The notes under the pieces are model-generated. The model searched no databases. It saw only the letters and a list, made by a program, of their open reading frames with translations, and was not told the origin of the DNA. Position numbers and translations under genes: made by a program. Below are positions 14,618-50,303 of a stretch of 64,000 bases of DNA, in pieces. This DNA is from Mycobacterium vicinigordonae. GTDB taxonomy: Bacteria > Actinomycetota > Actinomycetes > Mycobacteriales > Mycobacteriaceae. Location of the stretch: assembly GCF_013466425.1 (NCBI RefSeq), contig NZ_CP059165.1, positions 62,001 to 126,000 on the forward strand, in the 5' to 3' direction. Each line of letters opens with the position of its first letter. Positions within the stretch are counted from its first letter, which is position 1.

Positions 14618-15649
14618 TCATTGGGAGGCCATGAGTCGTGCGATTTGGCGCATGACGGTGCGGGTGGCTTGGTGTTTGATGTTGCCGATCGGGGAGCGGG
14701 CTGGCGGTGTCGGCGGCGCGGCGCCCAGGCGTGGAAAGAGTGCGAGGGCGTTGGCGGATTCGATCTCGGCGCGGGTGGCGGTGTCGAGGGGGTAGTTGTC
14801 GAGGTCGGCGGCGAAAAGCTGCGATGCGGGTAGGGGAGCGAAGGGCCAGTCGGACCCGAAGGTGATGTGCCCGGGTGCAGCGAAGGCGAGCAGGGTGGGC
14901 AGCGCGGCCGGGCTTGAGGACAGGGCGGTGTCGAAGTAGAAGCTGCGGAAGTCGTCGAGGGTGTCGGTGGGGCTGGCGCCGGTGTCGCCGGTGATGGCCA
15001 CGGCCATGCGATGGCTGGCGTAGGGGACGAAGCCGCCGGCGTGGCTGAGGATGAATTTGATGTTGGGATAGGTGCGGCGGATTCCGTTGCGCACCAGCAG
15101 GTATGCCGCGCGTGTGGTGTCGAGGAGGAAGTCGGCGGCGAACGGCGCGACGTCGGGGACGGTGGGTCCGGGGAGGTCGGCGGGGTGGATGAACACGACC
15201 GCCGAGCGGGCGTCGAGGGCGGCGAACAGTTCGTCTTGTCCGGTTTGGCCGAGGTAGATGCCGGCGTTGTTGGCCAGCAGCACGACTCCGTCAGCGTTCA
15301 GGGTGTCCAGAGCGCGGACGGTTTCGCTGACGGCGGCGTCGATGTGCGGCAGGGGGATGGTTGCGAAAAACCCGAAGCGCTGGGGGTTTTCGGCCACCAG
15401 TGCTGCAGTGTAGTCGTTAAGGTCGCGGGCCAGAGCGCTGGCGTCGGCGGCCTGAGGCAGAAATGTGGTGCCTGGGGTTGAAACGGACAGGATCGCGGTG
15501 CTGACATCGAGGGCGTCCATGGTCTTCAGGGATGCCTGCGGGCTCCATTGCGGCAGTGCGCGGCCACCGGCCTCATCAATACCGGCTTTTTCCAGCGCGG
15601 CGCGGTAGAAGTCGGGGATGGCGTGGTGGTGGGTGTCGATGCGGGCCAT
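14618..15649 (-). CDS. amidohydrolase-2 family (ACMSD-like) metal-dependent decarboxylase/hydrolase
   Basis: A 343-residue TIM-barrel protein starting MARIDTHHHAIPDFY. Metal ligands typical of the ACMSD family are in place: the HxH at 7-9, H155 (FIHP), H203 (LSHAGG) and D267 (GSDWPF). Family members decarboxylate or hydrolyse aromatic or dienoic acids, such as aminocarboxymuconate semialdehyde. It is the last gene of a minus-strand operon with the half dioxygenase (15 bp away) and the FAD hydroxylase, so it probably acts on an aromatic acid or ring-cleavage product. The reaction is inferred from family and context only. Confidence 0.8.
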   Translation of the reverse strand: MARIDTHHHAIPDFYRAALEKAGIDEAGGRALPQWSPQASLKTMDALDVSTAILSVSTPGTTFLPQAADASALARDLNDYTAALVAENPQRFGFFATIPLPHIDAAVSETVRALDTLNADGVVLLANNAGIYLGQTGQDELFAALDARSAVVFIHPADLPGPTVPDVAPFAADFLLDTTRAAYLLVRNGIRRTYPNIKFILSHAGGFVPYASHRMAVAITGDTGASPTDTLDDFRSFYFDTALSSSPAALPTLLAFAAPGHITFGSDWPFAPLPASQLFAADLDNYPLDTATRAEIESANALALFPRLGAAPPTPPARSPIGNIKHQATRTVMRQIARLMASQ

Positions 15650-15664
15650 AGGTTTTGTCCTTTC

Positions 15665-16111
15665 TCAGTTGTCGGCGATGCCGGGTCCCGACAGTGCGGG
15701 CACGGTGTCTTCGCGGTGCAGCCGGGAGGTTGCGCCGAGCCGGAATTGGTGCAGTTCGTCGATGTTGGTCTGGCCTTCGGGGGTGTGTCCCCAGATGCTG
15801 ATGCCTTGGTGTGTGCTGGGTTGCCAGGTGGTCTCGTCGATGACGGTTGGGTTCCACCCCAGTTCCCATTCGAATCTTGTGGGTGTCGTGGCGTAGAAGG
15901 ACAGGTCGTTGTCGTTGGTGTGTTGCCCCACGCACAGGGTTATGTCGAAGCTGAGTCGTTTGGCCCGGCGGTAGGCGCTGCTCATGTCGTCGAGGTCAGC
16001 GACTTGGATGTTGAGGTGTTGGATGCGGCTGCGAATCAACTTGAGTGGCAAGCGTTTAACTGTCGTCGCGGCGATACTGGCGGTGTGTTCGGTCAGGGCG
16101 ACGGTGGTCAT
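15665..16111 (-). CDS. VOC protein equal to the C-terminal half of a type I extradiol dioxygenase
   Basis: A 148-residue protein that aligns with the C-terminal, catalytic half of BphC-like extradiol dioxygenases. It keeps H32 (IQHLNIQV, second iron ligand), H64 (GQHTND, active-site base region), Y73 and E83 (FEWELGW, third iron ligand). The half with the first iron ligand is absent: the 30 residues before H32 show no VOC strand pattern. Its ATG overlaps the stop of the FAD hydroxylase gene (ATGA), so it is translated with it. It could be a degenerate or regulatory remnant, or a single-repeat protein that dimerises. A complete enzyme of the same family is encoded about 10 kb away. Confidence 0.72.
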   Translation of the reverse strand: MTTVALTEHTASIAATTVKRLPLKLIRSRIQHLNIQVADLDDMSSAYRRAKRLSFDITLCVGQHTNDNDLSFYATTPTRFEWELGWNPTVIDETTWQPSTHQGISIWGHTPEGQTNIDELHQFRLGATSRLHREDTVPALSGPGIADN

Positions 16112-17703
16112 GCAGATACTCCGTTTCGGTGTTCGTTTTTGCGTGCCGGTGGGCACGGCGTGCGAAGGCCAGCCGGCGGCGGGGGCAGCGTGGCGGTGAG
16201 ATCGGCTGCGGCGTAGATGAATCCGTCGGGGCGGATGACGACGGCTGCGGCCTTCTTTGAGCGCAGCCAGCTGCTCAGCGTGCCGGTGTGGTCGGCGATG
16301 TCGCTGCCGATCCGCAAGATGGGTACACCCAAATCGGCCCAGGCTCGGCGGCCCGCGGGCGCGGTGCTCAGGTGGAGCAGCGCCCACTGACCGCCCAGGA
16401 CGTCATCGAGGCGCGCGACGGCGCCGGTGGCGTCGGTGACCCAGGGCTGCGGGATCTGCCAGCCGACGGCCTGGCTTTTGCCGCGGCCGGGCAGGGTGCG
16501 GGCGCCGGCGGCGAAAAACCCTGCGGCGTAAAAGGCGTCGGGGATCCAGAACAGTCTCTGCGAACCGGAGATCACGCCGGGCACTTTGGTGATGGTGCGG
16601 ATCAGCAGGTTGCGTGCGCCGGCGAGCAGTTTGTTGCGTTCGGTGATGATGCGGCCGACCCTCACCGCGCGGCAGGTGACCTCGGTGACGTGTGGTTTGC
16701 GTTCGGCCTCATAGGAATCCAGAATTTCCTGCGGGGCCTGCCCAGCCAGCACAGCGGCCAGTTTCCAGCACAGGTTGGCCGCGTCGCGCACGCCGGCCGA
16801 CATGCCTTGCCCGATCCAGGGTGGCATCGCGTGGGCGGCATCGCCGGCCAGAAAGACCCGGCCAACTCGCCAGCGGTCGGCGACGCGGACGTGGTGGCTG
16901 TAGATGACCGCGCGCAGAATCTTGACGTGCTCTTCGGTGATGCCCTGGTCGTGCAGCACTTGCCAGACGGCGGCGTCGCTGGTCAAGATGGCGTCGTCTT
17001 CGTCGGCGCGGGCGGGAAATTCCCAGCGGTGATGGCCCAGCGGGGTGGGGCAGTCGACGGTGGGCCGGTCGGGATTGCAGTGAAACCTCAACCGGTCGTG
17101 GGCATCCCACTCTTTGAGGACCTTGGTGTCGATGACCACCCACCGCTCACTGTAGGTGCGTCCGCTGTAGCCTATGCCTAGCAGGCCACGCGTCGGTGAG
17201 GAGCCGCCGTCGGCGGCGATCACATAAGAGGCCCGCACCGTGCGCAGGGTCTCGGTGCGCGCATCGAGCACCAGGAGTTCGGCGTGGTCGGCGTGGTTGC
17301 GGGTGCGCAGCACTTCGTGCTCAAGCAGCACCTCGACGTTGAGGAACCGGGCCACGCCCTCGCGCAGGACCGCGTCGACGGCGGGTTGGTAGAGGAACTG
17401 CTGGGGCGGGTGCCCGCTGCCGCGGGCGGCGATGGTCGATTCGATGAACGGAACACCGTCGGCATCGACAAAGGCGGTGGGCCGGTCGGGCAGCATGTCG
17501 CGCTGCAGCCGTTCGGCCAGCCCGACCGACTGCCAGATCCGCATCACCTCTTCATCGGTCGAGATCGCACGTGCCCGGCTGTACACATCGGAGTCGCGTT
17601 CGATGACCACGACGTTCAATCCGGCCTGGCCCAAAATGTTGGCGGCGGTGGCCCCGGTGGGTCCGTAGCCGATGATCGCCACGTCGTAGGTCGTCTCGCT
17701 CAC
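16108..17703 (-). CDS. FAD-dependent aromatic hydroxylase, MhpA-like class A monooxygenase
   Basis: A 531-residue flavoprotein. The N-terminal Rossmann motif is VAIIGYGPTGATAANILG with acidic end IERD. A mid-protein GGSSPTRGLLGI and the second FAD motif VFLAGDAAHAMPPWIGQGMS (GD near the ribityl chain) place it with phenol-hydroxylase and 3-(3-hydroxyphenyl)propionate hydroxylases. A C-terminal thioredoxin-like region (AVVIRPDGFIYAA) is typical of MhpA. The GTG start (VSETTYDV) is chosen because the further upstream ATG lies inside the operator palindrome. It is first in the minus-strand operon and divergent from the hydratase gene, with a TetR-type operator between them. It probably makes a catechol for meta-cleavage. 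Confidence 0.87.
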   Translation of the reverse strand: MSETTYDVAIIGYGPTGATAANILGQAGLNVVVIERDSDVYSRARAISTDEEVMRIWQSVGLAERLQRDMLPDRPTAFVDADGVPFIESTIAARGSGHPPQQFLYQPAVDAVLREGVARFLNVEVLLEHEVLRTRNHADHAELLVLDARTETLRTVRASYVIAADGGSSPTRGLLGIGYSGRTYSERWVVIDTKVLKEWDAHDRLRFHCNPDRPTVDCPTPLGHHRWEFPARADEDDAILTSDAAVWQVLHDQGITEEHVKILRAVIYSHHVRVADRWRVGRVFLAGDAAHAMPPWIGQGMSAGVRDAANLCWKLAAVLAGQAPQEILDSYEAERKPHVTEVTCRAVRVGRIITERNKLLAGARNLLIRTITKVPGVISGSQRLFWIPDAFYAAGFFAAGARTLPGRGKSQAVGWQIPQPWVTDATGAVARLDDVLGGQWALLHLSTAPAGRRAWADLGVPILRIGSDIADHTGTLSSWLRSKKAAAVVIRPDGFIYAAADLTATLPPPPAGLRTPCPPARKNEHRNGVSA

Positions 17704-17748
17704 TGGTGGTGTCCGTTCGTTCGGCGCCGCTGCCGGCCGCACTTGTCC

Positions 17749-17784
17749 TGTAGTGATCACTACGCTAATGTGGCGAGTGCTACA
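17749..17784. promoter_or_regulatory. TetR-type operator between hydroxylase and hydratase genes
   Basis: TGTAGTGATCACTACG (17749-17764) contains a perfect 14-bp palindrome. A degenerate second copy, TGTGGCGAGTGCTACA, starts 20 bp later at 17769. It lies in the divergent gap, about 46 bp from one start and 50 bp from the other. It shares its sequence with sites at 19305, 20322 and 27769, the last beside the TetR gene. Confidence 0.8.
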
Positions 17785-17813
17785 GAGTCAAGATGTGGAA
17801 GGTGAATACGGTG

Positions 17814-18665
17814 ATGACCAGCAACGACCAGTCCTCCACCGCCCTAGAGGATGGCGCCCGGAGTCCCCGAGAGGCCCGCGCGACCGTGTCCCAGGAGGCT
17901 ATTGCCCAGGCCGCCGCCGATCTGTGGGCCGCCCGCCGTGAGTGCTCCCCGATCCCGCCACTGACCCAGAGTTTCCCCGGCCTGGACGTCGCCGGGGCCT
18001 ACGCGGTGCAGGAAGTGAACATGCGCCGCCGGCTGGCCGCCGGCGCGACGTTGGTGGGCCGCAAGATCGGTTTGACTTCGGCGCCGATGCAGCAACTGCT
18101 GGGTGTCGACGAACCCGACTATGGCTTCATCGTCGACGACATGGTCATCACCGGCGAGGCCGTGGCTGCAGAACGGTTCTGCGCACCCCGGATCGAACCT
18201 GAGGTCGCCTTCTTGTTGGGCAGTACCCTGCGCGGACCCGGTGTCACCGTGGCCGAGGTGCGGGCCGCGACCACGGCGGTGGCGGTCGCGCTGGAAATCG
18301 TCGACAGCCGCATCGCGGACTGGAAGCTGACGCTGCCCGACACCGTGGCCGACAACGCCTGCTCCGCGGCGGTCGTGCTCGGCGACTGGATCCCGTTCAC
18401 CGGCGACATCGACCTGCCCCGCTGCGAGGCCACCTTGCACCTCAACGGTGCCCACATCGACTCGGGGACCGGGGATGCGGTGATGGGCGACCCGGCTGCC
18501 GCAGTCGCCTGGCTGGCCAACGCGCTGGCCGAGTACGACGTGGAACTGCCCGCGGGGCAGTTCGTCATATCCGGTTCGTTCACCTCGGCTGCGTTCGTGC
18601 ACCCCGGTGACACGGCCGCTGCCACGATCAGCGGCCTGGGCTCGGTGTCGCTGAGCTTCAGCTAG
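17814..18665 (+). CDS. 2-hydroxypenta-2,4-dienoate hydratase (MhpD/HsaE-like)
   Basis: A 283-residue member of the MhpD/fumarylacetoacetate hydrolase-like hydratases, which add water to 2-hydroxypenta-2,4-dienoates made by meta-cleavage hydrolases. Conserved parts include VGRKIGLTS near residue 83, PRIEPEVAFLLG with metal-binding acids, ALEIVDSRI and ISGSFTSAAFVHPGD near the end. The ATG after GGAAGGTG is favoured; another start lies seven codons earlier. The first 35 residues are extra relative to the 260-residue family. No aldolase or acylating dehydrogenase (MhpE/F) follows, so those steps must be encoded elsewhere. Confidence 0.88.
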   Translation: MTSNDQSSTALEDGARSPREARATVSQEAIAQAAADLWAARRECSPIPPLTQSFPGLDVAGAYAVQEVNMRRRLAAGATLVGRKIGLTSAPMQQLLGVDEPDYGFIVDDMVITGEAVAAERFCAPRIEPEVAFLLGSTLRGPGVTVAEVRAATTAVAVALEIVDSRIADWKLTLPDTVADNACSAAVVLGDWIPFTGDIDLPRCEATLHLNGAHIDSGTGDAVMGDPAAAVAWLANALAEYDVELPAGQFVISGSFTSAAFVHPGDTAAATISGLGSVSLSFS

Positions 18666-19047
18666 AAGTAAAACCATGACTGCACAACATGATTGCCCGA
18701 CTGTCAGCTGCTTCTCGGGGACGGAGACACCCGAAAGCGGGAGAGTCACGTACGCATAGTGCAGTTCCTTTAGCGCAAGCTCGACGAGACCCGCCCGTTC
18801 GAAGTAAAGCGCTTGGCAGGCGACAATGAGCCCCTTGTCCAATGCCCGCTCGGATTCCTCAAGCCGTGTATCGCTGCGGACGAAATATCTTATGGGCTAA
18901 GGAATTGACGTGGCTATAGGTCATTCGCTGCCACTGCTGGCCGCCTGATTTTGAACTACCGCCGCACCGAAGCTCTCGTCATCCACGTCTATGAGTAGAG
19001 GCGGGTGCGGCGAAGGCGGCTGCGCTTGCAGCAACGCCTGGGTGGTC

Positions 19048-19287
19048 TCAGCGCGGATCCTTCGTCGTGACTCTTGAGAATGTCGTGCCAATGCGCATAC
19101 CCCAGCGGCCGGTCGCGACTCCCTCTCGAACGAGAACGTCGCCTTCACGGAAAGCAATCTTGTCTTTCCCGTTGTCGTCGACGTAATGCCCGGTCGCGGT
19201 CTTTCGTCTTGGATAAGTCGACCGAGGATCTGAACTCGGGGTGGGTGCGCGGAGTGACTCACCTATCAGTACGAATGCTTGTCCCAT
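19048..19287 (-). CDS. possible small hypothetical protein
   Basis: A 79-residue frame (MGQAFVLIGESLRAPTPSSD...) containing GHYVDDNGKDKIAFREGDVL, which reads like real protein sequence. I do not recognise the family. Its ATG is the first codon inside the 32-bp operator palindrome, so any transcript would be nearly leaderless and directly blocked by a bound repressor. This position is odd and lowers confidence. It is divergent from the acyltransferase gene. Confidence 0.3.
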   Translation of the reverse strand: MGQAFVLIGESLRAPTPSSDPRSTYPRRKTATGHYVDDNGKDKIAFREGDVLVREGVATGRWGMRIGTTFSRVTTKDPR

Positions 19288-19320
19288 AACGATCACTACA
19301 CTAGTGTAGTGATCGTTACA
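19287..19320. promoter_or_regulatory. 32-bp perfect palindrome: double TetR-type operator
   Basis: Bases 19287-19318 form a perfect inverted repeat with half TAACGATCACTACACT. It contains the 16-mer TGTAGTGATCGTTACA (19305-19320) and its near-complete mirror image, so two overlapping copies of the cluster operator are placed back to back. It lies 94 bp upstream of the acyltransferase start. Confidence 0.8.
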
Positions 19321-19413
19321 TTAAATGGGTCGACGTACGGAATGTCTCATGACCCTACCTGCGGTGTCGCCGCCTCACCGGCATCGCTCTGACTCCGACG
19401 GGAACACACCACC

Positions 19414-20289
19414 ATGTCTAAACTCCTGCTAGACCGCCCCGACACCGAACTCCTCGACGCCGCGCTGCTCGAGGCTCTTGACGAGGACCTGCGTCTGCCC
19501 GATGGCGAGCCGCCCGCGGAGCCCGAGGCGGCGAACGCGGCTGGGATGGTGCTGCGCCGCGTGTGTATCGAGTTCGTCCGCCGCTACCACCGGCTCGAGG
19601 TGCAGGTTGAGCCCGGTGTGCTGGATCGTCCGGTGCTGTTTGTGGCCAACCACGGATTCGGGGGCCTGTTTGATCTCAACGTGTTCGCCGTCGGCGCGGC
19701 CATCGAGCAGATGGGTGTCACACGGCCGGTGACCGCACTGGCCCACCAGTTCTCCTGGACGGTGGGGCTGGGCGCGCTGGCCGAAGGGCTGGGTTGTCGA
19801 CCGGCGAGCCGCGACAGTGCCCGTGAGGCGTTCGCCGCGGGTCACCACTTGCTGGTGCTGCCCGGCGGCGATCTGGACGCCTTCAAGTCGTACAAGGACC
19901 GCAACCGCATCGTGTTCGGCGGGCGCAGCGGCTTCGCGAGGCTGGCCATGGAGCACGACTTACAGATCGTGCCGATCGTCACCGCCGGAGCCGGCGAATC
20001 GCTGCTGGCCCTGTCCAGCGGCCAGCGCCTGGCGCGGGCCTTGAAGCTGGATAAGACGCTGCGCCTCAAGGCGTTACCGATCAGCGTCTCGGTGCCGTGG
20101 GGTTTGAACATCGGTGCGGTCGGACTGCTGCCCTACGTGCCGCTGCCGACCAAACTGAGCACCCGCGTGCTGGCGCCGATGGTGCCCGCCGAGGGCGAAA
20201 CCTCCGATGCGTTCGCCGAGCGGGTCCAGTCGGCGATGCAGAAGTCGCTGACCGACATGACCAAAAACCGGCGCCCCTTCCTGGGGTGA
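19414..20289 (+). CDS. MGAT/PlsC-like acyltransferase (copy 1)
   Basis: A 291-residue LPLAT-superfamily protein. The acceptor motif is NHGFGGLFD (residues 79-87) and the second block is LPGGDLDAFKSYKDRNRIVF, the PGG pattern of monoacylglycerol/diacylglycerol acyltransferase-like members rather than the HX4D PlsC motif. No clear transmembrane helix is visible. It would acylate a lipid or alcohol acceptor from acyl-CoA. It is a distant paralogue of the acyltransferase in the second gene set (31842). It stands alone between two operator copies inside the aromatic cluster, which is unusual; a role in storing or masking a hydrophobic substrate is possible but unproven. Confidence 0.78.
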   Translation: MSKLLLDRPDTELLDAALLEALDEDLRLPDGEPPAEPEAANAAGMVLRRVCIEFVRRYHRLEVQVEPGVLDRPVLFVANHGFGGLFDLNVFAVGAAIEQMGVTRPVTALAHQFSWTVGLGALAEGLGCRPASRDSAREAFAAGHHLLVLPGGDLDAFKSYKDRNRIVFGGRSGFARLAMEHDLQIVPIVTAGAGESLLALSSGQRLARALKLDKTLRLKALPISVSVPWGLNIGAVGLLPYVPLPTKLSTRVLAPMVPAEGETSDAFAERVQSAMQKSLTDMTKNRRPFLG

Positions 20290-20321
20290 GCCCCATTGAC
20301 CGGACCAAACCCTTCAGTTAG

Positions 20322-20337
20322 TGTAATGATCACTACA
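20322..20337. promoter_or_regulatory. TetR-type operator upstream of the MMPL gene
   Basis: TGTAATGATCACTACA is palindromic except for one base pair and matches the cluster operator. It lies just after the acyltransferase gene and 130 bp upstream of the MMPL transporter start. Confidence 0.78.
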
Positions 20338-20467
20338 GGCATCCTAGGTCGGGTTGCGGCCTTGTCACTCTGCGTACCCGTGGACCGGCTCGCCGCGCGC
20401 GCAGCCCGTGCCCAGGGCTGAGGTGCCGGCGTCCGCGACGCGCGCTCGATAAGTGAGGCGAAACCGT

Positions 20468-23209
20468 ATGTCTTCCTTCCTGTATTGGCTCGGTAGTCTG
20501 TTGACCCGACGCCGGGGCTGGGTGTTGGCGGCGTGGCTGTTGGTGCTGGCGGTGGCCGGCGGCGGCGCGGCGTTCAACACCGGGACCAACGACACCTTCG
20601 CCGTGCCGGGCACCCAGTCCCAAGACACCCTGGACTACCTGGGCCGGGTGTTCCCGCAGGTGTCGGGCAGCTCAGCGCAACTGGTGATCGTCGTCCCGCC
20701 CGGCAGTAACGTCACTGCACTGGCCGCACCGGCGACCGCCGTGGCGGTCACCCGACTCGCTGCCCTTGATCAGGTCGCTGCGGTGATCAACCCCTTCGAC
20801 CCCGCGGCGGGGACCCATACACCCGCTGGAAGTCCCACACCGCGGATCCAGGCCCCGATCTCCACCGATCACCGGGCCGCTATCATCACCGCCCAGCTGC
20901 GTGTCGCGCTGACCGACGTGCACCCTGCCACCCGTACCCAGCTCACCACGATCGGCCATGACCTGGCCGCCGCGATCGGTCACGGCGCCACCGTCCACGT
21001 CGGCGGGCCAGCGTTTTCCAACCCGGTACCTAAGCTGAGCCCCACCGAAGGCATTGGCCTGCTGATCGCATTCGGGGTACTGCTGGCCGTGTTTGGATCG
21101 CTGATCGCAGCCGGGATGCCGCTGATGACCGCGATCCTGGGAGTGGCGATCTCGGTGGCGCTGATCTACACCGCCACCGTGGTGACCCCGGTGTCGTCGA
21201 CCGCGCCGATGCTCGCGGTGATGCTGGGACTCGCGGTCGGGATCGACTACGCCCTATTTCTGCTGTCACGGCACCGCGACCAACTCGCCGAAGGCCTCGA
21301 GGTCGACGAGTCCATCGCCCGAGCCACCGCCACCGCCGGCTCGGCGGTGGTCTTCGCAGGTCTGACCGTCATCATCGCCCTGGTCGGTCTGGTCGTCGGA
21401 CGCATCCCGTTTTTGACCACCATGGGCCTGTCCGCGGCTACCGCGGTGGCGATCGCGGTCGCGGTCGCGGTGACCTTGATCCCGGCCCTGATGAGCTTCG
21501 CCGGCGAACGCCTGCGCCCGGCGCCGCGGCGCACCACGTCTGGCGGCGGCGGGTGGGCGCGACGCTGGGTGCGCGCCGTCACCAAAATTCCCGCGCTCAC
21601 CGTGGCGATCGTGATCGCCGCACTCACGGTGTGCACACTACCGACGACCCAGCTGCGTCTTGCGTTGCCCGACAACGGATCCGAAGAAGCCGGGAGTGCC
21701 GCACGCGACACATACGACACCGTCAGCCAGTTTTTCGGCCCCGGCTACAACGGCCCGCTCGTGGTGACCGCCGACATCATCGCCAGCACCGACCCGATCG
21801 GGGTGGTCAACACGATCGCCGAGCAGATCGCCCGGATGCCCGGGGTGGCGGCCGTCCCGCTGGCCAGCCCGGACCCCAAGGCCGACACCGGCGTCATCCA
21901 GGTCGTGCCCGCCGCCGCCCCGGACTCTGCGGCCACCGAGGATCTGGTCAACTCGTTGCGCGCCCAGCGCATCCACTTCCGGCAGGCCTACGGCATCGAC
22001 ACCGCTGTCACCGGGATCACCGCGGTCGGCGTCGATGTGTCCGCGCGCCTGGGCGCGGCCCTGCTGCCCTTCGGTGTGCTGGTCGTCGGGCTCTCACTGG
22101 TGTTGCTGGCCATGGTGTTCCGATCGATTTGGGTGCCCGTCAAAGCCGCCGCCGGCTACCTGCTGTCGGTCGGGGCGGCGTTCGGGGCCACCTCGTTCGT
22201 GTTCGGCCAAGGCCACCTGGCGGCGGCGCTGGGTGTTGAGCACACCGGTGCGGTGGTCAGCTTCTTACCGATCATCTTGATGGGTGTGCTGTTCGGGCTG
22301 GCCATGGACTACGAAGTGTTCCTAGTCTCCCGGATCCGGGAAAGCTATGTCCGGCACGGTGATCCGGGACAGGCCATCCAGGACGGATTCATCTCGGCCT
22401 CCCGCGTCGTGGTGGCGGCCGCGGTGATCATGTTCGCGGTGTTCGCCGCATTCGTGCCCGAAGGCAGCGCGATCATCAAACCGATCGCGTTCAGCTTGGC
22501 CGTCGGAGTGTTCATCGACGCGTTCGTGGTCCGCATGACCCTGGTTCCGGCGGTACTGGCGCTGCTGGGCCGCCACGCCTGGTGGCTACCGGGGGCCATC
22601 GACCGCCGGCTGCCGATCTTCGACGCCGAAGGCGATGGACTGATGCACGAACTGCGCCTGGCCGACTGGCCGACCCCCGACAGCGACGACGCGATCAACG
22701 CTGCCGGCCTGACCCGCACCGACGACCGCGGCCACGACGTCTACCGCGACATCAACCTCACCCTGGCCCGCGGGCACATCCTGGTCATTACCGGCGCCGG
22801 CCCGGCCGGCAAAACGGCGTTGCTCTATACCCTGGCCGCCCGCGTCGGACGCATCGACGGCGACCTCAAAGTTTTGGGATATGTTGTGCCCCAACACCTG
22901 CGCACCGTGCGCCGCCACGTCGCAGTGATTGACTGCCGCACCACCACCGACCCCGACACCGACGTCAACGCCGCACTGGGCGCCGACATCGCGCTGATCC
23001 TGCTCGACGACGTCGACCTGATCCTGCGCCCAGCCACCCGCGAGCACCTGCGCGCCGCACTGGCCGCGCGCACCACCGCCTCAGGACAGCCCGCCACATT
23101 CGTGCTGACCTGTCAGGACCCCGCCCGCATCGCCGACCTGCTGCCGGCCGACACCGGCGTCACCGACACCCTCGACCTGACCCTCGCCACGGTGGGAGCG
23201 CCGTCATGA
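20468..23209 (+). CDS. MMPL-family transporter fused to a degenerate ABC-type ATPase domain
   Basis: 913 residues. The first ~720 are a full MMPL/RND transporter: TM1 (GWVLAAWLLVLAVAGG), a periplasmic loop, TM2-6 with the proton-relay type segment GLAVGIDYALFLLSRHRD, a second loop and TM7-12 with FGLAMDYEVFLVSRIRE. After the last helix a soluble domain follows. In it DINLTLARGHILVITGAGPA leads into Walker A (GAGPAGKT near 775-782), and ALILLDDVDLI is Walker B near 842-851. No LSGGQ signature is visible, so ATPase activity is uncertain. The next gene overlaps by ATGA and encodes a YhgE-type protein. Such an RND-plus-nucleotide-binding fusion is unusual for MmpL proteins. It is probably a lipid or hydrophobic compound exporter. 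Confidence 0.85.
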   Translation: MSSFLYWLGSLLTRRRGWVLAAWLLVLAVAGGGAAFNTGTNDTFAVPGTQSQDTLDYLGRVFPQVSGSSAQLVIVVPPGSNVTALAAPATAVAVTRLAALDQVAAVINPFDPAAGTHTPAGSPTPRIQAPISTDHRAAIITAQLRVALTDVHPATRTQLTTIGHDLAAAIGHGATVHVGGPAFSNPVPKLSPTEGIGLLIAFGVLLAVFGSLIAAGMPLMTAILGVAISVALIYTATVVTPVSSTAPMLAVMLGLAVGIDYALFLLSRHRDQLAEGLEVDESIARATATAGSAVVFAGLTVIIALVGLVVGRIPFLTTMGLSAATAVAIAVAVAVTLIPALMSFAGERLRPAPRRTTSGGGGWARRWVRAVTKIPALTVAIVIAALTVCTLPTTQLRLALPDNGSEEAGSAARDTYDTVSQFFGPGYNGPLVVTADIIASTDPIGVVNTIAEQIARMPGVAAVPLASPDPKADTGVIQVVPAAAPDSAATEDLVNSLRAQRIHFRQAYGIDTAVTGITAVGVDVSARLGAALLPFGVLVVGLSLVLLAMVFRSIWVPVKAAAGYLLSVGAAFGATSFVFGQGHLAAALGVEHTGAVVSFLPIILMGVLFGLAMDYEVFLVSRIRESYVRHGDPGQAIQDGFISASRVVVAAAVIMFAVFAAFVPEGSAIIKPIAFSLAVGVFIDAFVVRMTLVPAVLALLGRHAWWLPGAIDRRLPIFDAEGDGLMHELRLADWPTPDSDDAINAAGLTRTDDRGHDVYRDINLTLARGHILVITGAGPAGKTALLYTLAARVGRIDGDLKVLGYVVPQHLRTVRRHVAVIDCRTTTDPDTDVNAALGADIALILLDDVDLILRPATREHLRAALAARTTASGQPATFVLTCQDPARIADLLPADTGVTDTLDLTLATVGAPS

Positions 23210-24789
23210 ACAGCACCGACCTTCGCGTGCGGCCCACCCCGCCCGACGCGGCGACCTGGCGAACCTGGGCGAGTCTGATCGTGCTGCCCGTGCTGGTGCT
23301 CACGCTGTTCTTGTGGGCCTTCTGGTCACCGCAGACCAACCACGGCGCCGCCACCGCGGCCGTGGTCAACGACGATCACCCGGTCACCATCGACGGCCAA
23401 ACCCTGCCGCTGGGCCGCCAACTTGCCGCCAACCTCATCACCGCCCACGCCGCCTACAGCTGGGTCCTCACCGACGCCGCCGACGCCCGCAACGGGCTGG
23501 CCCGCGGCCGCTACGGCGCGGTGGTGTACATCCCATCAGACTTCTCGGCCAAGGCGACGTCCTCGGCCAGCCCGAACCCGCTAGCTGCCGGTCAGGCCCA
23601 GATACGAGTGCAGACCTCCAACGCCACCGGTGTGGCCGACCCCCTGGTCAGCACCCAGATCGCCGAAGTCATCCTGCACACCCTCAACCAGCAGATCGTC
23701 AAGACTTACCTCGACAAGGTCTACCTGTCGTTCTCGACCATTCACGACCAGCTCGACCACGCCGCCAGCGGCGCAACACAATTGGCCGACGGCGCCGACC
23801 AACTCAGCACCGGAGCCACTCAGCTGTCGACGGGAACCGCGCAACTGGCCGGCGGACTCAACGACGCCGAGGCCAAGCTCAACGATGCCCGCGCCGCGGT
23901 CAACGGCCTGCAACACCAGCTGCAAGTCCCGCCGCCACCATCGGGCGGGCCCCTGTCCCAAATCGAGCGCCTCGCCGCCGGCCTGGACAGTGCCGCCGTC
24001 GGCGCCACCAAGGTCAACGACGGCGCACACCAACTCGACAGCGGACTGCGCCAGTTATCCAGCGGCGCGCACCAATTGGCCGAGCAACTCGCCCGCGGCC
24101 GCGACCAGGTGCCCTCCTACGATCAAGCCCAACGCGAGCGCCTCACCAACGTCGCCGCCACCCCGGCCGTCGCGCTCACCGACACCACCGATCTAGGCGC
24201 CGCCGTGGCCGCCGTCGGCGTCACGCTGGCGTTGTGGAGCGCCGCGCTGGCCACCTACATCATCACCCGCGCCCTGCCCGCCGCCGTGCTGACCTCAAGA
24301 GAATCCACCCGCGCCATCGTGGCCCGCGCTGCCGCCCCGGGGGTCGCGGTCGCGCTGACCGCCGCCGCCGTCGTCACCGCAATCCTGCTGTCGGTCCTGC
24401 ACCTCAGCCCCACCCGCTGGTGTGCCCTGCTGGGAGTGACCGCCTTGGCCGCGCTCACCTTCACCGCCCTCAACCAAGCCGCCACTGCGATACTGCGACG
24501 CCCCGGCCGCTTCCTTTGCATCACCGTGCTGGTGCTGGCCATCGTCACCAATCTGACCTCCACGATCCCGGCCACCCTGCACACCCTCGGCAGCTACCTG
24601 CCCACCCACGCCGCCGTGCTGGCGTTGCGCGGCGTCATCACCGGCTCCGACAGCGTCGGCGGCGGTATCGGGCAACTGATGGCCTGGCTGATCGGCGCCG
24701 CCGCCGCGACACTGCTGATCACCGAACACCGCCGTGCCCTGAGTAGCGCACAACTCCAGCTCGGACGGAACACGCCGCCGCTCGCTTGA
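23206..24789 (+). CDS. YhgE/Pip-type ABC-2-like membrane protein
   Basis: A 527-residue membrane protein. One N-terminal helix (LIVLPVLVLTLFLWAFW) is followed by an extracytoplasmic region. Two blocks of the X-Leu-x2-Gly repeat typical of YhgE/Pip proteins (QLADGADQLSTGATQLSTG; DGAHQLDSGLRQLSSGAHQL) occupy about residues 185-295. Five or so C-terminal helices of ABC-2 permease type end the protein. It starts inside the stop of the MMPL gene, so the two are made together. The likely reading is one complex: MMPL channel, fused nucleotide-binding domain and this permease-like partner. Confidence 0.83.
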   Translation: MNSTDLRVRPTPPDAATWRTWASLIVLPVLVLTLFLWAFWSPQTNHGAATAAVVNDDHPVTIDGQTLPLGRQLAANLITAHAAYSWVLTDAADARNGLARGRYGAVVYIPSDFSAKATSSASPNPLAAGQAQIRVQTSNATGVADPLVSTQIAEVILHTLNQQIVKTYLDKVYLSFSTIHDQLDHAASGATQLADGADQLSTGATQLSTGTAQLAGGLNDAEAKLNDARAAVNGLQHQLQVPPPPSGGPLSQIERLAAGLDSAAVGATKVNDGAHQLDSGLRQLSSGAHQLAEQLARGRDQVPSYDQAQRERLTNVAATPAVALTDTTDLGAAVAAVGVTLALWSAALATYIITRALPAAVLTSRESTRAIVARAAAPGVAVALTAAAVVTAILLSVLHLSPTRWCALLGVTALAALTFTALNQAATAILRRPGRFLCITVLVLAIVTNLTSTIPATLHTLGSYLPTHAAVLALRGVITGSDSVGGGIGQLMAWLIGAAAATLLITEHRRALSSAQLQLGRNTPPLA

Positions 24790-24870
24790 CCCCCGGCAGC
24801 CAGCTGGTGGCGTACTGCAGGCCGATCCCGTCGATGGCGCCGTTGATCGCGATCGTCGACACCGGTTGTG

Positions 24871-25707
24871 TCACAGAAAATCTCGCAGCAGGTCGGCGAA
24901 ACGGTCGGGGTGTTCGAACTGCAGCCAGTGCCCGGCGCTCTTGACGATCTCCAGTCGCGCGTTGGGCAGCATCGCGGCATACCAGCGGCTGGCCTGCGGG
25001 TCGATGATGCGGTCGCTGTCGCCGTGTACCAGCAACACCGGGTGGGTGATGGTGGCCATGGTCTCAGCGGTGATCGGCAAGGGCCCGCCGGTAGGTGCGA
25101 ACGTGGCACGGTGGGAGCGTTCCACCTCCGGGCGCGTCGCGCGCAGCATCCGCTCGGCGGCGATGCCCATAAGTTGGTCCCCGAAAACCCCGGAGTCGCT
25201 GACGAACTGGGTCAACAGCCGGCTCATCGCCTCCACAGACGGGTCGTCGTAGAACAGGATCAGCGAGACCAACCCGCGGGTTGGGGGCAGCGGCGCTCCG
25301 CCGGCGCCCATCAGTACCAGACGGCGCACCCGCTGCGGGTGTGCCAGCGTCAAGCACATGCCAACGATGGCGCCCATCGAGTTGCCGACGATGTCGACCT
25401 GATCGATCCCCAACTGGTCGAGTAGCGCGATCAGGGTGGCGACCCGCAAATCGGTGAACGCGGCGATACCCTGCGGCGGCGGATCGGGGTGGGTGGAGTC
25501 GCCAAACCCGATCACATCGGGAGCCAGGTTGTAGAAGTCACCGGCCAGGGCGGCCAGCAGGTTCTCCCAGTTGGTCAGGGCCGTGACACCGGGTCCAGAT
25601 CCATGCAGCCACAGCACCGGTCGGCTAGCGGGGTCTCCTGAGGTGGACAGATGGAACCGGACATCGCCGACGGCCACATCCTGAGTGGTGATCGTCGATG
25701 TCGTCAC
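24871..25707 (-). CDS. meta-cleavage product hydrolase (BphD/HsaD/MhpC-like)
   Basis: A 278-residue alpha/beta-hydrolase that would cut the C-C bond of a ring-fission product. The oxyanion region HGSGPG is at 35-40, the nucleophile S110 is in GNSMGA, D232 is in HGDSDRIID and H260 is in SAGHW. HGSGPGxxA and NSMGG-like elbows are diagnostic of meta-cleavage hydrolases. The GTG start overlaps the dioxygenase stop (GTGA), completing a hydroxylase-dioxygenase-hydrolase operon. It would release a short acid and a 2-hydroxypentadienoate for the hydratase. Confidence 0.93.
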   Translation of the reverse strand: MTTSTITTQDVAVGDVRFHLSTSGDPASRPVLWLHGSGPGVTALTNWENLLAALAGDFYNLAPDVIGFGDSTHPDPPPQGIAAFTDLRVATLIALLDQLGIDQVDIVGNSMGAIVGMCLTLAHPQRVRRLVLMGAGGAPLPPTRGLVSLILFYDDPSVEAMSRLLTQFVSDSGVFGDQLMGIAAERMLRATRPEVERSHRATFAPTGGPLPITAETMATITHPVLLVHGDSDRIIDPQASRWYAAMLPNARLEIVKSAGHWLQFEHPDRFADLLRDFL

Positions 25708-26606
25708 AAGGCCGCCCCTACCGCGGCGTGCACGATGCCCGGCACCGGCGCATCGTCGGGGCGATAATGACCTGAGCTGCTCATCGCGTCGTAGTGCCCG
25801 GGCGGCCACGGTGAGCTGGTGTCGATCGTTTTTCCGCCCGAGCCGTACTCGATCTCAAAACCCGACGGCCCCCGCACATAGAACGAGTACATCTCGTCAT
25901 TGGTGTGGCGGCCCAGCGTCATCGCGACGGGTAATCCACAGTTCTGCACCAGCTTCCACGCGGACTCGACAGTCTGCGGGTCCGCTACTTCCAGCATCAG
26001 GTGGTGAAAGCCACGCAGACCGGGCACCGCGGTGAACGCCAGGCTGTGATGGCGGGCATTGCAGTGCAGGAACCGCACCGTGATGCCGTCCTCGATGTCA
26101 TCGGATATCCGAAAACCCAGTACATCGACGAAAAACTCGGTGGCCGCCTCGAAGTCGGGCACGATCAACACGCCATGGCCCAGACCCTGATCGCCGGTGA
26201 CGAACGACACCCCAGCCCGACCGGGCACGAAAGCCTCAGCAGCGGCGGGGATTCCGTGCACGAGTTCGTGGCGGAAGCCGAACGGGTCGATAAACCATGC
26301 AGCCCCGTCGACGCCTCGGGCTTGGGCCAATGCGTCGTCGACATGGACTACGACACCCCGCGCGGATAGCCGCGCGGCGATTGCGGCCAGGTTCTCGGGG
26401 CCAGCGACCGACCAGCCAAGGTAAGCGACGTCGTTGGTGTCACCGGGATGGATCGCGATGCGCCACGGGGCGTCATCGCTGCGCAACCGCAGCGCGCCGT
26501 CACCATCTGGCTCGGCAACTTGCAGACCGAGAACGTCGGGGCCGAAGGTGGCCCACTGCTGATAGTCCGGTGAGGTGAACCCGATGTAGGACAGTGCCTG
26601 GATCAC
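25704..26606 (-). CDS. type I extradiol catechol dioxygenase (BphC/HsaC-like)
   Basis: A 300-residue two-domain vicinal-oxygen-chelate dioxygenase. Iron ligands are H144 (GLGHGVLIV), H202 (FHHLMLEV) and E253 (FEIEYGSG). Active-site H187, H234 (LGRHTND) and Y243 are also present. The N-terminal repeat (SYIGFTSPDYQQWATFGPDV) and length match BphC/HsaC enzymes that cleave catechols with bulky substituents. It overlaps both neighbours by 4 bp. Together with the class D hydroxylase and hydrolase it repeats the HsaA-C-D order of steroid and biphenyl pathways. Confidence 0.95.
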   Translation of the reverse strand: MIQALSYIGFTSPDYQQWATFGPDVLGLQVAEPDGDGALRLRSDDAPWRIAIHPGDTNDVAYLGWSVAGPENLAAIAARLSARGVVVHVDDALAQARGVDGAAWFIDPFGFRHELVHGIPAAAEAFVPGRAGVSFVTGDQGLGHGVLIVPDFEAATEFFVDVLGFRISDDIEDGITVRFLHCNARHHSLAFTAVPGLRGFHHLMLEVADPQTVESAWKLVQNCGLPVAMTLGRHTNDEMYSFYVRGPSGFEIEYGSGGKTIDTSSPWPPGHYDAMSSSGHYRPDDAPVPGIVHAAVGAAL

Positions 26607-27754
26607 AGCACCATCTCCGGGGTCTTGGTGCCCATCAGCGAGCCGCCGACGGATTTGGCCAGCGGGTCGGCAACTAGATAAGCATGCCCCATGGCGGCTT
26701 GGATGTCCTGGAATCGGCGCTGCAGTGGGTGATTGAGGAACACCGAGCGGCCCGACGCGGCGCGCATCAGATCTCCAATCGCCGCCGCCACGAGTTCACA
26801 GCTGCGGTTGAGGTTCCAGCGGAATCGGCCTCGCTGCTCCATTGTCGCGATAACGCCGTCGAGAGCCATCTGCCACAGCGTGTCGACGTCGGTGTGCAGC
26901 ATCGCCAGCGCGGCATCCAGCGTCCAGGTCGCCTCGGCCAGCCGGCGCTGGGTCAACGGATCATCGGCCTGCGCCAGGCCTGGCGGGATAACCCGGGTGG
27001 ACGACTCCTGGGTCCAGCGCTGCACGAAACCGGTGGCTGAACCCAGCACGCTGGCGGCCAGTGCGATGTTGAAAACCACCGACCACGGCAGCAGATATAG
27101 CGGTCCGGGATTGACCTGCTGGCCGGGCAGGGGCTTTCCGAACGCGTAATCTAAATGTGATTGCGAACGGTGTTCGGGGACAAAGGTTTCTGCGACCACG
27201 ATGTCTTTGCTGCCGGTGCCGCGCAGTCCTGCGACATGCCAGTTGTCCTCGATGCGGTACTGGTCGGCGTGCAGCAGAAACGACCGGTACTCGGACCCCT
27301 CCGGTCCGCGCAGGATCGCCCCGACGTTGACCCCCTCGCAGTGGTCACACCCCGAGGAGAAGGACCAGCGGCCCGATACCTGATACCCGCCGTTGACGCG
27401 CTGGGCCGTCCCGGTCGGGTTGTAGGACGACGAATGCATCCGTGCTGGCTCGTCGCCCCACATCTCCTGCTGGGCCTGATCCGGGAACAACGCCAGCTGC
27501 CACGGGTGCACCCCGATGACACCGGTCACCCAGCCCGCCGACGGCGAGGCCTTCGATACCTCGATGACGCAGTCGACGAACTCCCGCAGGGAGACTTCGC
27601 CGCCGCCGAACCGCGCTGGCTGCAAGGCCCGCAGAAACCCGATGTCCTGCAACTGTTTCCACACATTGTCCGGTAACTGGCGTAATTCGGCGGCCTCGTC
27701 CTCGGCGGCGGCCAGTTCCGGAGCGATCCGCTGCGCCTCATCGATTAGCGACAT
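26603..27754 (-). CDS. flavin-dependent monooxygenase of acyl-CoA dehydrogenase fold (HsaA-like)
   Basis: A 383-residue group D flavin monooxygenase of the type that uses reduced flavin from a separate reductase (HsaA, 4-hydroxyphenylacetate hydroxylase C2). It has the acyl-CoA dehydrogenase-like helical start (LPDNVWKQLQDIGFLRALQP), the mid beta-domain (NGGYQVSGRWSFSSGCDHCE; GTGSKDIVVAETFVPEHR) and a helical end. ATG (MSLIDEAQR) follows the RBS AGGAGGAAG; the frame is open further upstream but passes through the operator. It is first in the operon. No HsaB-like flavin reductase is found in the window, so the partner must be elsewhere. Confidence 0.88.
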   Translation of the reverse strand: MSLIDEAQRIAPELAAAEDEAAELRQLPDNVWKQLQDIGFLRALQPARFGGGEVSLREFVDCVIEVSKASPSAGWVTGVIGVHPWQLALFPDQAQQEMWGDEPARMHSSSYNPTGTAQRVNGGYQVSGRWSFSSGCDHCEGVNVGAILRGPEGSEYRSFLLHADQYRIEDNWHVAGLRGTGSKDIVVAETFVPEHRSQSHLDYAFGKPLPGQQVNPGPLYLLPWSVVFNIALAASVLGSATGFVQRWTQESSTRVIPPGLAQADDPLTQRRLAEATWTLDAALAMLHTDVDTLWQMALDGVIATMEQRGRFRWNLNRSCELVAAAIGDLMRAASGRSVFLNHPLQRRFQDIQAAMGHAYLVADPLAKSVGGSLMGTKTPEMVL

Positions 27755-27768
27755 AGCCCACTTCCTCC

Positions 27769-27784
27769 TGTAGTGAGCGATACA
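27769..27784. promoter_or_regulatory. TetR-type operator between the HsaA-like and TetR genes
   Basis: TGTAGTGAGCGATACA matches the cluster operator at most positions and sits directly upstream of the RBS of the monooxygenase operon, 52 bp before the TetR start. This is the position expected for a repressor that controls both its neighbour operon and itself. Confidence 0.72.
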
Positions 27785-27835
27785 ATAAGGAAGGTTTGAC
27801 GGTAAAGTCAAGAGCAGGAAAAACAGGAGGCCACC

Positions 27836-28465
27836 ATGACCACCACCCCGGATAAACCCCGCCAGCGCCGCGTCAACGGCGAAGCGTCGAGGTTGAAGAT
27901 CCTGCAAGCAGCAACCGAGATCGCCGCCGAGCGGGGCTACGAGGGCACCTCAATCGGGCTGGTCAGTGAGCGCTCAGGCCTGCCCGCAAGTTCGATCTAC
28001 TGGCACTTCAAGGACAAAGACGCGCTCATCGCCGCCGTCATCGACCACAGCTTTGAGACCTGGCTTTCCAACGCCGGCATCGGACCAGAGCTTCCCGAAG
28101 GACCAATCGATGACCAACTCAAAGCGATGATGCAGGGCACAGCTAAAGCACTGCGGGAATCCTCGGACTTCCTGCGCCTCGGTCTGATGCTTACCCTGGA
28201 GCGACGCCCCGAAGAACCCACTGCCCGGCGCCGATTCCTGGCTGTGCGTGACGCGACCCTGACACGCACCATCGCAACGTTCGCCCGGCTGTTCCCCGAC
28301 CTCGACGAGTCCGCGCTACGGACCCTCGCCACTTTCACTATGGCCACCGCCGACGGACTGTTCATCGTCAGCGAAATCGACGGCGACGGCGCCGACATCA
28401 CCGCAGAATTCGACATGCTCGCCTCCGCCATCCATGGCGCTGTCACCCACCTGCGCAATCGTTGA
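27836..28465 (+). CDS. TetR-family repressor of the meta-cleavage cluster
   Basis: A 209-residue TetR regulator. The HTH lies in residues 18-65 (ILQAATEIAAERGYEGTSIG, then SGLPASSIYWHFKDKDALI), followed by a helical ligand domain (RRRFLAVRDATLTRTIATFA). RBS AGGAGG precedes the ATG. It is divergent from the hydroxylase-dioxygenase-hydrolase operon, with a palindromic site in the short gap and copies of that site before the other units of the cluster. It is therefore the best candidate for the regulator of the whole set. The ligand is probably the substrate, its CoA ester or a ring metabolite. Confidence 0.88.
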   Translation: MTTTPDKPRQRRVNGEASRLKILQAATEIAAERGYEGTSIGLVSERSGLPASSIYWHFKDKDALIAAVIDHSFETWLSNAGIGPELPEGPIDDQLKAMMQGTAKALRESSDFLRLGLMLTLERRPEEPTARRRFLAVRDATLTRTIATFARLFPDLDESALRTLATFTMATADGLFIVSEIDGDGADITAEFDMLASAIHGAVTHLRNR

Positions 28466-30277: not shown

Positions 30278-30485
30278 GCTTCGACGGTAGTTGGACTTGT
30301 CCCCGGAAGACAATGGTGCGCTGATCGTTGTCCCCAGACGACGTCGACGCAGCGACGTGAGGTGAGTAGCTTTTTGGACAAGCGCGGCTGCCGTCATCAC
30401 ATGACCAGCGGACCCGAATCCAGCACCGCGCGTTCGGAATTGATTCTTGACCCATTGGCCCGCGTGCACGGCGGAAGGAGACCAC

Positions 30486-30530
30486 ATGCCCACCACTCGG
30501 CACACTCCCTCAGCCGCGTGCGCACGATGA
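30486..30530 (+). CDS. 14-residue leader peptide before the second PucR gene
   Basis: ATG with a strong RBS (GGAAGGAG, five bases away) opens a 14-codon frame, MPTTRHTPSAACAR. Its TGA overlaps the ATG of the PucR gene (ATGA). The PucR start itself has no RBS of its own apart from sequence inside this peptide. This arrangement suggests translational coupling or a small regulatory uORF. It could also be chance. Confidence 0.4.
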   Translation: MPTTRHTPSAACAR

Positions 30531-35722: not shown

Positions 35723-35765
35723 CCACTCGCGTCGACGACGATCCAGATCGAAGCGATGAGGAGGA

Positions 35766-39471: not shown

Positions 39472-39480
39472 GAGGAAGCG

Positions 39481-50300: not shown

Positions 50301-50303
50301 CGA

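What the first reader, a model, noticed from the sequence alone, without database searches (positions are those of the whole stretch)
14618..28465. One TetR regulon built on a shared 16-bp palindrome
TGTAGTGATCACTACG (17749), TGTAGTGATCGTTACA (19305, inside a perfect 32-bp palindrome), TGTAATGATCACTACA (20322) and TGTAGTGAGCGATACA (27769) lie before all transcription units of this block, including the gap next to the TetR gene. No copy was seen elsewhere in the window. This ties the aromatic enzymes to an acyltransferase, an MMPL-ATPase fusion and a YhgE protein under one control, which is not a known arrangement to me.
Basis: partly seen in the sequence, partly recalled or inferred. Interest (0 to 1): 0.85.

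Follow-up and report, generated by a model that had tools for sequence, protein, structure and literature searches.

The report
Shared repressor site for aromatic catabolism
A 16-base DNA site, which looks like the docking site of a small family of repressor proteins common in mycobacteria and relatives, sits on the promoters of a set of aromatic-ring-breaking enzymes and, in this genome, also on those of an acyltransferase and a two-gene membrane exporter, so all are probably switched on together.

Summary
In detail: four copies of TGTAGTGATCACTACA (≤3 mismatches) lie at the stated places, 0.06 expected, and the 32-bp palindrome is 19287-19318. Two copies belong to 20-bp-spaced doublets whose weaker partners (17769, 19285) were missed. 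The motif is by sequence evidence the operator of a TetR subfamily: of 396 Mycobacterium genomes, 105 of the 108 with an exact core also carry this subfamily, and 70 of 71 places examined lie within 250 bp upstream of such a gene. In 27 of 29 independent doublets both divergent -10 boxes are locked onto the operator, as at all window sites. 'One TetR' is only partly right: a second paralogue (C1:1665893, 56% identical) has its own operator, and a second aromatic operon at C1:245 kb has a doublet. All 5 genomic hits at ≤2 mismatches are at these loci. Linkage of aromatic genes to the MMPL-ABC/YhgE exporter behind this operator recurs in one other Mycobacterium (L139). Binding, inducer and substrate are untested. 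New member of a known kind: a KstR-like TetR catabolic regulon, with exporter and acyltransferase added.

The parts
17749..17764 (.). Operator O1, left element of a 20-bp-spaced doublet between the FAD monooxygenase and hydratase genes (TGTAGTGATCACTACG)
   Evidence: 28.9 bits with a matrix trained on other loci
17769..17784 (.). Degenerate right element of the O1 doublet (TGTGGCGAGTGCTACA)
   Evidence: 6.6 bits; position fixed by the 20-bp spacing, the commonest in other loci (29 of 39 neighbouring pairs)
17743..17771 (+). Rightward promoter to the hydratase: -35 TTGTCC (17743-17748), -10 TAATGT (17766-17771)
17762..17791 (-). Leftward promoter to the FAD monooxygenase operon: -35 TTGACT (17786-17791), -10 TAGCGT (17762-17767)
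19285..19300 (.). Operator O2, left element (CATAACGATCACTACA)
   Evidence: 19.3 bits
19305..19320 (.). Operator O2, right element (TGTAGTGATCGTTACA); the perfect 32-bp palindrome 19287-19318 spans most of both O2 elements
   Evidence: 26.3 bits
19279..19307 (+). Promoter to the acyltransferase: -35 TTGTCC (19279-19284), -10 TAGTGT (19302-19307)
20322..20337 (.). Operator O3, single element (TGTAATGATCACTACA)
   Evidence: 28.0 bits
20296..20324 (+). Promoter to MMPL-ABC/YhgE: -35 TTGACC (20296-20301), -10 TAGTGT (20319-20324)
27769..27784 (.). Operator O4, single weaker element between the hydroxylase and TetR genes (TGTAGTGAGCGATACA)
   Evidence: 19.4 bits
27782..27811 (-). Promoter to the hydroxylase operon: -35 TTGACT (27806-27811), -10 TATTGT (27782-27787)
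27836..28465 (+). TetR-family regulator, A-type paralogue
   Evidence: PF00440 TetR_N; A clade in the tree; HTH comparison
26603..27754 (-). Flavin-dependent hydroxylase, oxygenase component, HsaA-like (also resembles p-hydroxyphenylacetate hydroxylase C2)
   Evidence: NF045629 at 324 bits, below its 450 cut-off; PDB 2rfq, 2jbr
25704..26606 (-). Type I extradiol dioxygenase, BphC/HsaC-like
   Evidence: PF00903, PF22632; TIGR03213 below cut-off; PDB 6l3w
24871..25707 (-). Alpha/beta hydrolase, HsaD/BphD-like meta-cleavage product hydrolase
   Evidence: PF00561; NF045632 below cut-off
16108..17703 (-). FAD-dependent aromatic monooxygenase, MhpA-like
   Evidence: PF01494; NF004829 subfamily at 434 bits, above its 390 cut-off
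15665..16111 (-). C-terminal half of an extradiol dioxygenase (148 aa; L097 relative 326 aa); lacks the N-terminal domain and the His of the GLGHVA motif; probably inactive
   Evidence: alignment with L097, L012, L013
14618..15649 (-). Amidohydrolase, possible decarboxylase or hydrolase
   Evidence: PF04909
17793..18665 (+). 2-oxopent-4-enoate hydratase-like enzyme
   Evidence: PF01557; TIGR03220 below cut-off
19414..20289 (+). Glycerolipid-type acyltransferase
   Evidence: PF01553, PF03982
20468..23209 (+). MMPL/RND exporter with a C-terminal mini-ABC ATPase domain
   Evidence: PF03176, PF00005; aligned C-terminus in 108 proteins
23206..24789 (+). YhgE/Pip-type ABC-2 membrane protein, overlapping the MMPL-ABC gene by 4 bp
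   Evidence: TIGR03061 above its cut-off, TIGR03062 below its own; PF12698

Best explanation
The palindrome is the operator of a TetR subfamily that represses aromatic meta-cleavage genes in Mycobacterium and its relatives. At each window operator the first three bases are the last three bases of a promoter's -10 box, so a bound TetR dimer should block RNA polymerase. Divergent promoters carry two operators 20 bp apart (about two helical turns), one on each -10 box. An aromatic pathway metabolite, not identified, would release the repressor and switch on ring hydroxylation, ring cleavage and product hydrolysis. In this genome the same switch has been extended to an acyltransferase and to the MMPL-ABC/YhgE exporter, probably to protect or remodel the envelope during growth on a hydrophobic aromatic compound. 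Two paralogous repressors, A (27836) and B (C1:1665893), most likely share the operators. Shown here: motif, spacing, promoter phase, co-occurrence with the TetR subfamily, shared HTH core, genomic distribution. Inferred: binding, repression, inducer, substrate, transport role, division of labour between A and B.
For: Four sites against 0.06 expected. A matrix trained on 96 sites from other loci gives 28.9, 26.3, 28.0, 19.4 and 19.3 bits in the window, while 30 simulated windows gave nothing at 12 or more. Of 396 genomes, 108 have the exact core, 143 the TetR subfamily and 105 both, and 70 of 71 places examined lie within 250 bp upstream of a TetR hit. Of the 8 -10/-35 patterns at offset -3 to a TGT/CGT in about 100 kb, 7 fall on operator copies; 28 of 29 and 27 of 29 independent doublets have the rightward and leftward promoter at exactly -3. 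In the own genome all 5 hits at 2 or fewer mismatches are at TetR/aromatic loci. A and B share the stretch GLPASSIYWHFKDKD. In L013 the FAD monooxygenase operators stand beside an A-type TetR. L139 has TetR-B, doublet, FAD monooxygenase, dioxygenase, amidohydrolase, MMPL-ABC and YhgE in one run.
Against: No binding or expression data. The A-type TetR's own upstream site is not well conserved: of its 6 relatives, 3 have a site of 17 bits or more, one 13.5, two none. O4, next to the TetR, is one of the weaker window sites. The phased promoters at O4 and at the TetR-B site read away from the TetR genes, so autoregulation is not shown. No operator stands before the acyltransferase in 29 other loci, nor at MMPL-ABC/YhgE in L138 and L140. 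The Streptomyces A-clade member L084_12337 has no such site upstream, and 14 of 33 Streptomyces loci lack a site of 17 bits. In the real window one unrelated place (56829) reaches 12.7 bits. The -3 phase rule was seen first on the window sites, then tested on other loci. Genomes are related, so the co-occurrence p-value overstates the case. The local ring-cleavage gene is truncated, so part of the block may be decaying.
Confidence: 0.82

Rival explanations
1. The B-type TetR at C1:1665893 is the real regulator of the window operators; the TetR at 27836 controls only its neighbouring hydroxylase operon or something else. (Not exclusive with the best explanation, which allows both.)
For: In most relatives the FAD monooxygenase operator is next to a B-type TetR. 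Three of six TetR-A relatives have a weak or no site of their own. The own B gene keeps a good operator, 24.2 bits.
Against: TetR-A has the same HTH core. O4 lies between TetR-A and its divergent operon with a phased promoter. L010, L012 and L013 have a site before TetR-A, and in L013 it is the FAD monooxygenase operator pair itself.
Confidence: 0.3
2. Two separate regulons with overlapping operators: A for the HsaA/BphC/HsaD-like branch, B for the MhpA-like branch plus exporter and acyltransferase, with little cross-talk.
For: A-clade TetR lies beside a HsaA/BphC/hydrolase-like trio in L084 and beside the hydrolase in L012; B-type TetR lies beside the FAD monooxygenase operon. O4 deviates from the consensus.
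Against: Identical recognition-helix core. The window has no B gene between doublet and hydratase, yet keeps a consensus O1 element. L013 has the A-type at the FAD monooxygenase operators.
Confidence: 0.25
3. The sites are relics in a decaying cluster and no longer control anything coherent.
For: Truncated dioxygenase, no hydrolase gene between it and the monooxygenase, no mhpE/mhpF homologue in the window, degenerate right element of O1.
Against: O2 and O3 score 26.3 and 28.0 bits with phased promoters on full-length genes. The other pathway genes are present at C1:245 kb under a doublet.
Confidence: 0.08
4. Chance palindromes or a general promoter feature.
For: In the own genome the count at 3 or fewer mismatches (9) is close to the reversed control (7).
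Against: Window enrichment, co-occurrence with the TetR subfamily, phase in 27 of 29 independent doublets, exact-core control hits in only 3 of 396 genomes.
Confidence: 0.02

Closest known systems
KstR (Rv3574) cholesterol/lipid regulon of mycobacteria (PMC1995591, passages seen, part of the abstract among them)
   Same: TetR repressor; short palindrome in divergent promoters, partly overlapping the -10 box; several catabolic operons
   Different: KstR palindrome is TnnAACnnGTTnnA, which has 0 matches in this window; here a different 16-mer, a 20-bp doublet, two paralogous TetRs, and an exporter plus acyltransferase among the targets; KstR represses its own gene, which is not shown here
Mhp/Hpp 3-(3-hydroxyphenyl)propionate pathway (recalled; family names)
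   Same: MhpA-like monooxygenase, extradiol dioxygenase, C-C hydrolase, hydratase, and MhpE/MhpF-like proteins at the 245-kb locus
   Different: TetR control; a glyoxalase-type dioxygenase and an added amidohydrolase; substrate unknown
HsaA/HsaC/HsaD steroid A/B-ring pathway
   Same: Window trio 24871-27754: best NCBIfam hits are HsaA for the hydroxylase and HsaD for the hydrolase; the dioxygenase hits BphC first, HsaC second
   Different: All three score below the equivalog cut-offs; no KstR box in the window
TetR regulators that bind at mmpL genes in M. tuberculosis (Rv0302, Rv3249c; PMC6463170 and PMC9430723, passages seen)
   Same: TetR proteins linked to MMPL transporters; PDB 5d18 is the best solved-structure match to this TetR (its identity as Rv0302 is recalled)
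   Different: Rv0302 and Rv3249 release DNA on binding palmitic acid, and an alkX (rv3249c) mutant shows no change in mmpL3 or mmpL11 expression; here the exporter promoter has an operator on its -10 box

Membership tests
TetR-family repressor | N-terminal TetR_N HTH domain | tested here: met
   PF00440, 52 bits against a 24 cut-off
TetR-family repressor | Palindromic operator near its own gene, overlapping a promoter | tested here: met
   27769-27784 between TetR and the divergent operon; phased promoter of that operon
TetR-family repressor | Autoregulation | tested here: inconclusive
   operator in front of the gene, but no promoter towards TetR by the rule
TetR-family repressor | Ligand-relieved DNA binding | not testable with these tools
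   needs EMSA with ligands
KstR regulon | TnnAACnnGTTnnA operator | tested here: not met
   0 matches in the window
HsaACD steroid-ring enzymes | Scores above NCBIfam equivalog cut-offs | tested here: not met
   HsaA 324 of 450, HsaC 208 of 450, HsaD 147 of 400 bits
Mhp-type pathway | MhpA-family monooxygenase | tested here: met
   subfamily NF004829 above its cut-off; equivalog NF004831 below its own
Mhp-type pathway | Complete set of ring-cleavage and lower-pathway genes under the same operator in this genome | tested here: inconclusive
   monooxygenase, dioxygenase, hydrolase-like ORF and MhpE/MhpF-like genes at C1:245 kb; hydratase in the window; substrate untested
MMPL exporters | MMPL domains | tested here: met
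   PF03176, 2 stretches
ABC transporters (the fused C-terminal domain) | Walker A and Walker B motifs | tested here: met
   GxxxxGK[TS] in 94 of 108 proteins of more than 850 aa; DD after a hydrophobic run in the conserved columns, by eye
ABC transporters (the fused C-terminal domain) | LSGGQ-type signature | tested here: not met
   none visible by eye in the query or the conserved columns

The most novel reading that the evidence does not exclude
A catabolic operator has spread in trans. Two paralogous TetRs read one 16-bp palindrome at three distant loci. After the aromatic cluster lost its local B-type TetR, the A-type paralogue next door took over, and the same operator came to control an acyltransferase and a fused MMPL-ABC/YhgE exporter. 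Ring breakdown, lipid acylation and export would then answer to one aromatic signal.
Probability: 0.4. Interest if true: 0.65.

Novelty: new member of a known kind. Interest (0 to 1): 0.5.

Why it matters
It gives an exact, testable operator for a TetR subfamily present in 143 of 396 Mycobacterium genomes. Nine literature searches showed no description of it in what they listed; two of them, for the motif and close variants, found 0 papers in the held library. It also links an MMPL-ABC/YhgE exporter pair to aromatic catabolism, which offers a handle on the exporter's substrate.

Tried and rejected
KstR control of the HsaACD-like trio: no KstR box in the window. Chance or a general promoter feature: rejected. 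Relict TetR-B, mhpE or mhpF in the window: tblastn at E≤1e-3 found only the window's own TetR-A as a TetR-B relative and no mhpE or mhpF remnant. A unique MMPL-ATPase fusion: rejected, since 129 proteins (own one included; candidates capped) match this C-terminal stretch, although only 3 of 396 Mycobacterium genomes, own included, do at E≤1e-30. An ancestral acyltransferase operator: 30 loci were returned for 53 matches, one of them the window's own; 0 of the other 29 has a site of 17 bits or more upstream within the 1.5 kb held. Literature: (motif and variants) 0 papers; 0 papers; searches gave nothing on this system as far as titles and abstract openings show (one search listed 10 of 3,348, 10 of 18, 10 of 14). 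Substrate identification led nowhere. No structure prediction was run, because it would not decide between A and B.
Full report
OBSERVATION. TGTAGTGATCACTACA with up to 3 mismatches occurs four times in the window, at 17749, 19305, 20322 and 27769, against 0.06 expected from shuffles. The palindrome at 19287-19318 is perfect over 32 bp, the longest in the window. The window is C1:62001-126000 of a 6.27-Mb genome. That it is a Mycobacterium (broad sense) is my inference from matching loci with record titles to handles of 'same genus'.

OPERATOR MODEL. One search gave 80 TetR loci from named genomes. Neighbouring sites of ≤3 mismatches are 20 bp apart in 29 pairs and at another spacing under 200 bp in 10 (15, 19, 21, 22 or 24 bp). 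With a looser rule, 31 of the 80 loci hold a 20-bp doublet; all 31 are mycobacterial (genus from titles). A weight matrix trained on 96 sites from L016-L089, i.e. without the window and without the loci that brought in A-type TetRs, scores the window sites 28.9 (17749), 26.3 (19305), 28.0 (20322), 19.4 (27769), 19.3 (19285) and 6.6 (17769). Thirty simulated windows gave no score of 12 or more; the real window has one other place at 12.7 (56829, inside an ORF). The training sites were picked by similarity to the same consensus, so the matrix is not fully independent. Within 260 bp upstream of the matched TetR, 35 of 38 Mycobacterium/Mycolicibacterium loci, 4 of 4 Rhodococcus, 19 of 33 Streptomyces and 3 of 5 others have a site of 17 bits or more, 61 of 80 in all; the three mycobacterial misses are all A-type TetRs (L011, L014, L015).

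CO-OCCURRENCE. In 396 Mycobacterium genomes the exact core TGTAGYGATCRCTAC is present in 108, the TetR subfamily (E≤1e-40, A and B types together) in 143, both in 105; the three exceptions are G067, G159 and G268, and 38 genomes have the TetR without the exact core. Of 71 places examined's cut list, 70 lie 26-192 bp upstream of a matched TetR stretch; for the other (G159) I had no TetR hit on its contig. The pattern read backwards hits 3 genomes. The genomes are related, so the Fisher value (7e-59) is not a true probability.

PROMOTER PHASE. At all four window sites a TTGxxx-17/18-TAnnnT promoter reading into the expected gene begins its -10 box exactly 3 bp before an operator element, so the element's first three bases are the end of the -10 box. 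In the window plus L096 and L097, 8 positions of 6057 TGT/CGT triplets meet this rule, and 7 of the 8 are operator copies; the eighth is at 30286. In 29 doublets from L016-L089 the rightward promoter sits at -3 in 28 and the leftward in 27, with a single case at any other offset from -12 to +7; over all positions of those loci, operators included, the rule is met 156 times in 2.86 million. At O4 and at the TetR-B site the phased promoter reads away from the TetR gene. Mechanism (inferred): a bound dimer occludes -10, and the doublet shuts both divergent promoters. The KstR paper describes a motif partly overlapping -10 (PMC1995591, passages).

WHICH TetR. The own genome has two close members of the subfamily: the window gene (A) and C1:1665893 (B, 56% identical); the next match is 29%. 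A 24.2-bit site starts 77 bp before the matched stretch of B. A and its relatives in L010-L015 plus L084_12337 form a clade with support 1.0 in a tree of 90 sequences. A and B share GLPASSIYWHFKDKD in the HTH region. In L011 and L015 (doublet) and L014 (single site) the FAD monooxygenase operator stands next to a B-type TetR followed by the hydratase; in L013 an operator pair 15 bp apart stands between the FAD monooxygenase and an A-type TetR. In the window no B gene lies between doublet and hydratase. A-type TetR is rare: 7 of 396 genomes, own included, at E≤1e-70. The window block therefore looks like a B-type cluster that lost its own TetR and lies beside an A-type cluster (inference).

REGULON IN THE GENOME. 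Hits at ≤2 mismatches: 17749, 19305 and 20322 in the window, C1:245280 and C1:1665816. The 245-kb locus (L097) holds a doublet (22.0 and 24.6 bits) in front of a second FAD monooxygenase (67%), a hydrolase-like ORF and a full-length dioxygenase, divergent from MhpF- and MhpE-like genes; no TetR of the subfamily lies in it. The three remaining 3-mismatch places (L007-L009) score 9.9, 13.3 and 16.8 bits, and no homologue of the window genes lies within their 3-kb loci.

EXPORTER AND ACYLTRANSFERASE. The MMPL-ABC C-terminal stretch matches 129 proteins, own included, but only 3 of 396 Mycobacterium genomes, own included, at E≤1e-30. In all four Mycobacterium loci seen (window, L138, L139, L140) YhgE follows directly. 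L139 carries TetR-B, a doublet, FAD monooxygenase 72%, dioxygenase, amidohydrolase 76%, MMPL-ABC 74% and YhgE 68% in one run. L138 has acyltransferase, a more distant FAD monooxygenase (30%), MMPL-ABC and YhgE without an operator; L140 has no operator either. So the exporter's link to this operator is seen in two genomes. By eye from the lists, the acyltransferase lies within 10 kb of a TetR of this subfamily in at least 7 other genomes (G008, G090, G106, G137, G284, G333, G369). None of 29 other acyltransferase loci (of 52 other matches) has the operator in front of it within 1.5 kb.

STATE OF THE LOCAL PATHWAY. The dioxygenase at 15665-16111 keeps only its C-terminal half; the L097 relative has 326 aa, and the His of the GLGHVA motif is missing (its role as a metal ligand is recalled). 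The hydrolase gene usual between monooxygenase and dioxygenase is absent here. Ring cleavage would have to come from the BphC-like enzyme at 25704-26606 or from the 245-kb locus (inference).

VERDICT. By sequence evidence the operator is close to certain, and shared control of the block is likely; the single-TetR claim is not established. Known kind (a TetR catabolic regulon like KstR), new member, with an exporter and acyltransferase attached.

Noticed in passing
window 15665-16111: Extradiol dioxygenase reduced to its C-terminal half, overlapping the FAD monooxygenase gene end; the hydrolase gene usual between them is missing.
   Followed up: yes
L013 (Mycobacterium colombiense E1334) 9780 and 9795: Two operators only 15 bp apart between an FAD monooxygenase and an A-type TetR, the one pair outside the 19-24 bp range.
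   Followed up: no
L025 2582/2603, L033 4770/4791, L037 2580/2601, L052 2462/2483: Streptomyces loci carry 21-bp-spaced operator pairs (with TGTAGTGAACACTACA) several kb from the TetR, about 300 bp before an amidohydrolase-like match: possible further targets in those genomes.
   Followed up: no
window 48514-58015: An mce-type operon (YrbE-like and Mce-like ORFs) follows P450, Rieske-like and GMC-oxidoreductase-like ORFs at 34484-41193; no operator of this regulon there at 17 bits or more. Names are by eye.
   Followed up: no
window 29003-31705: Two long, overlapping, divergent ORFs resembling PucR/CdaR-type regulators next to the TetR gene. Named by eye.
   Followed up: no
window 20468-23209: The MMPL protein's fused ATPase domain keeps Walker A and B but shows no LSGGQ-type signature by eye, and the conserved columns of 108 aligned proteins look the same.
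   Followed up: partly
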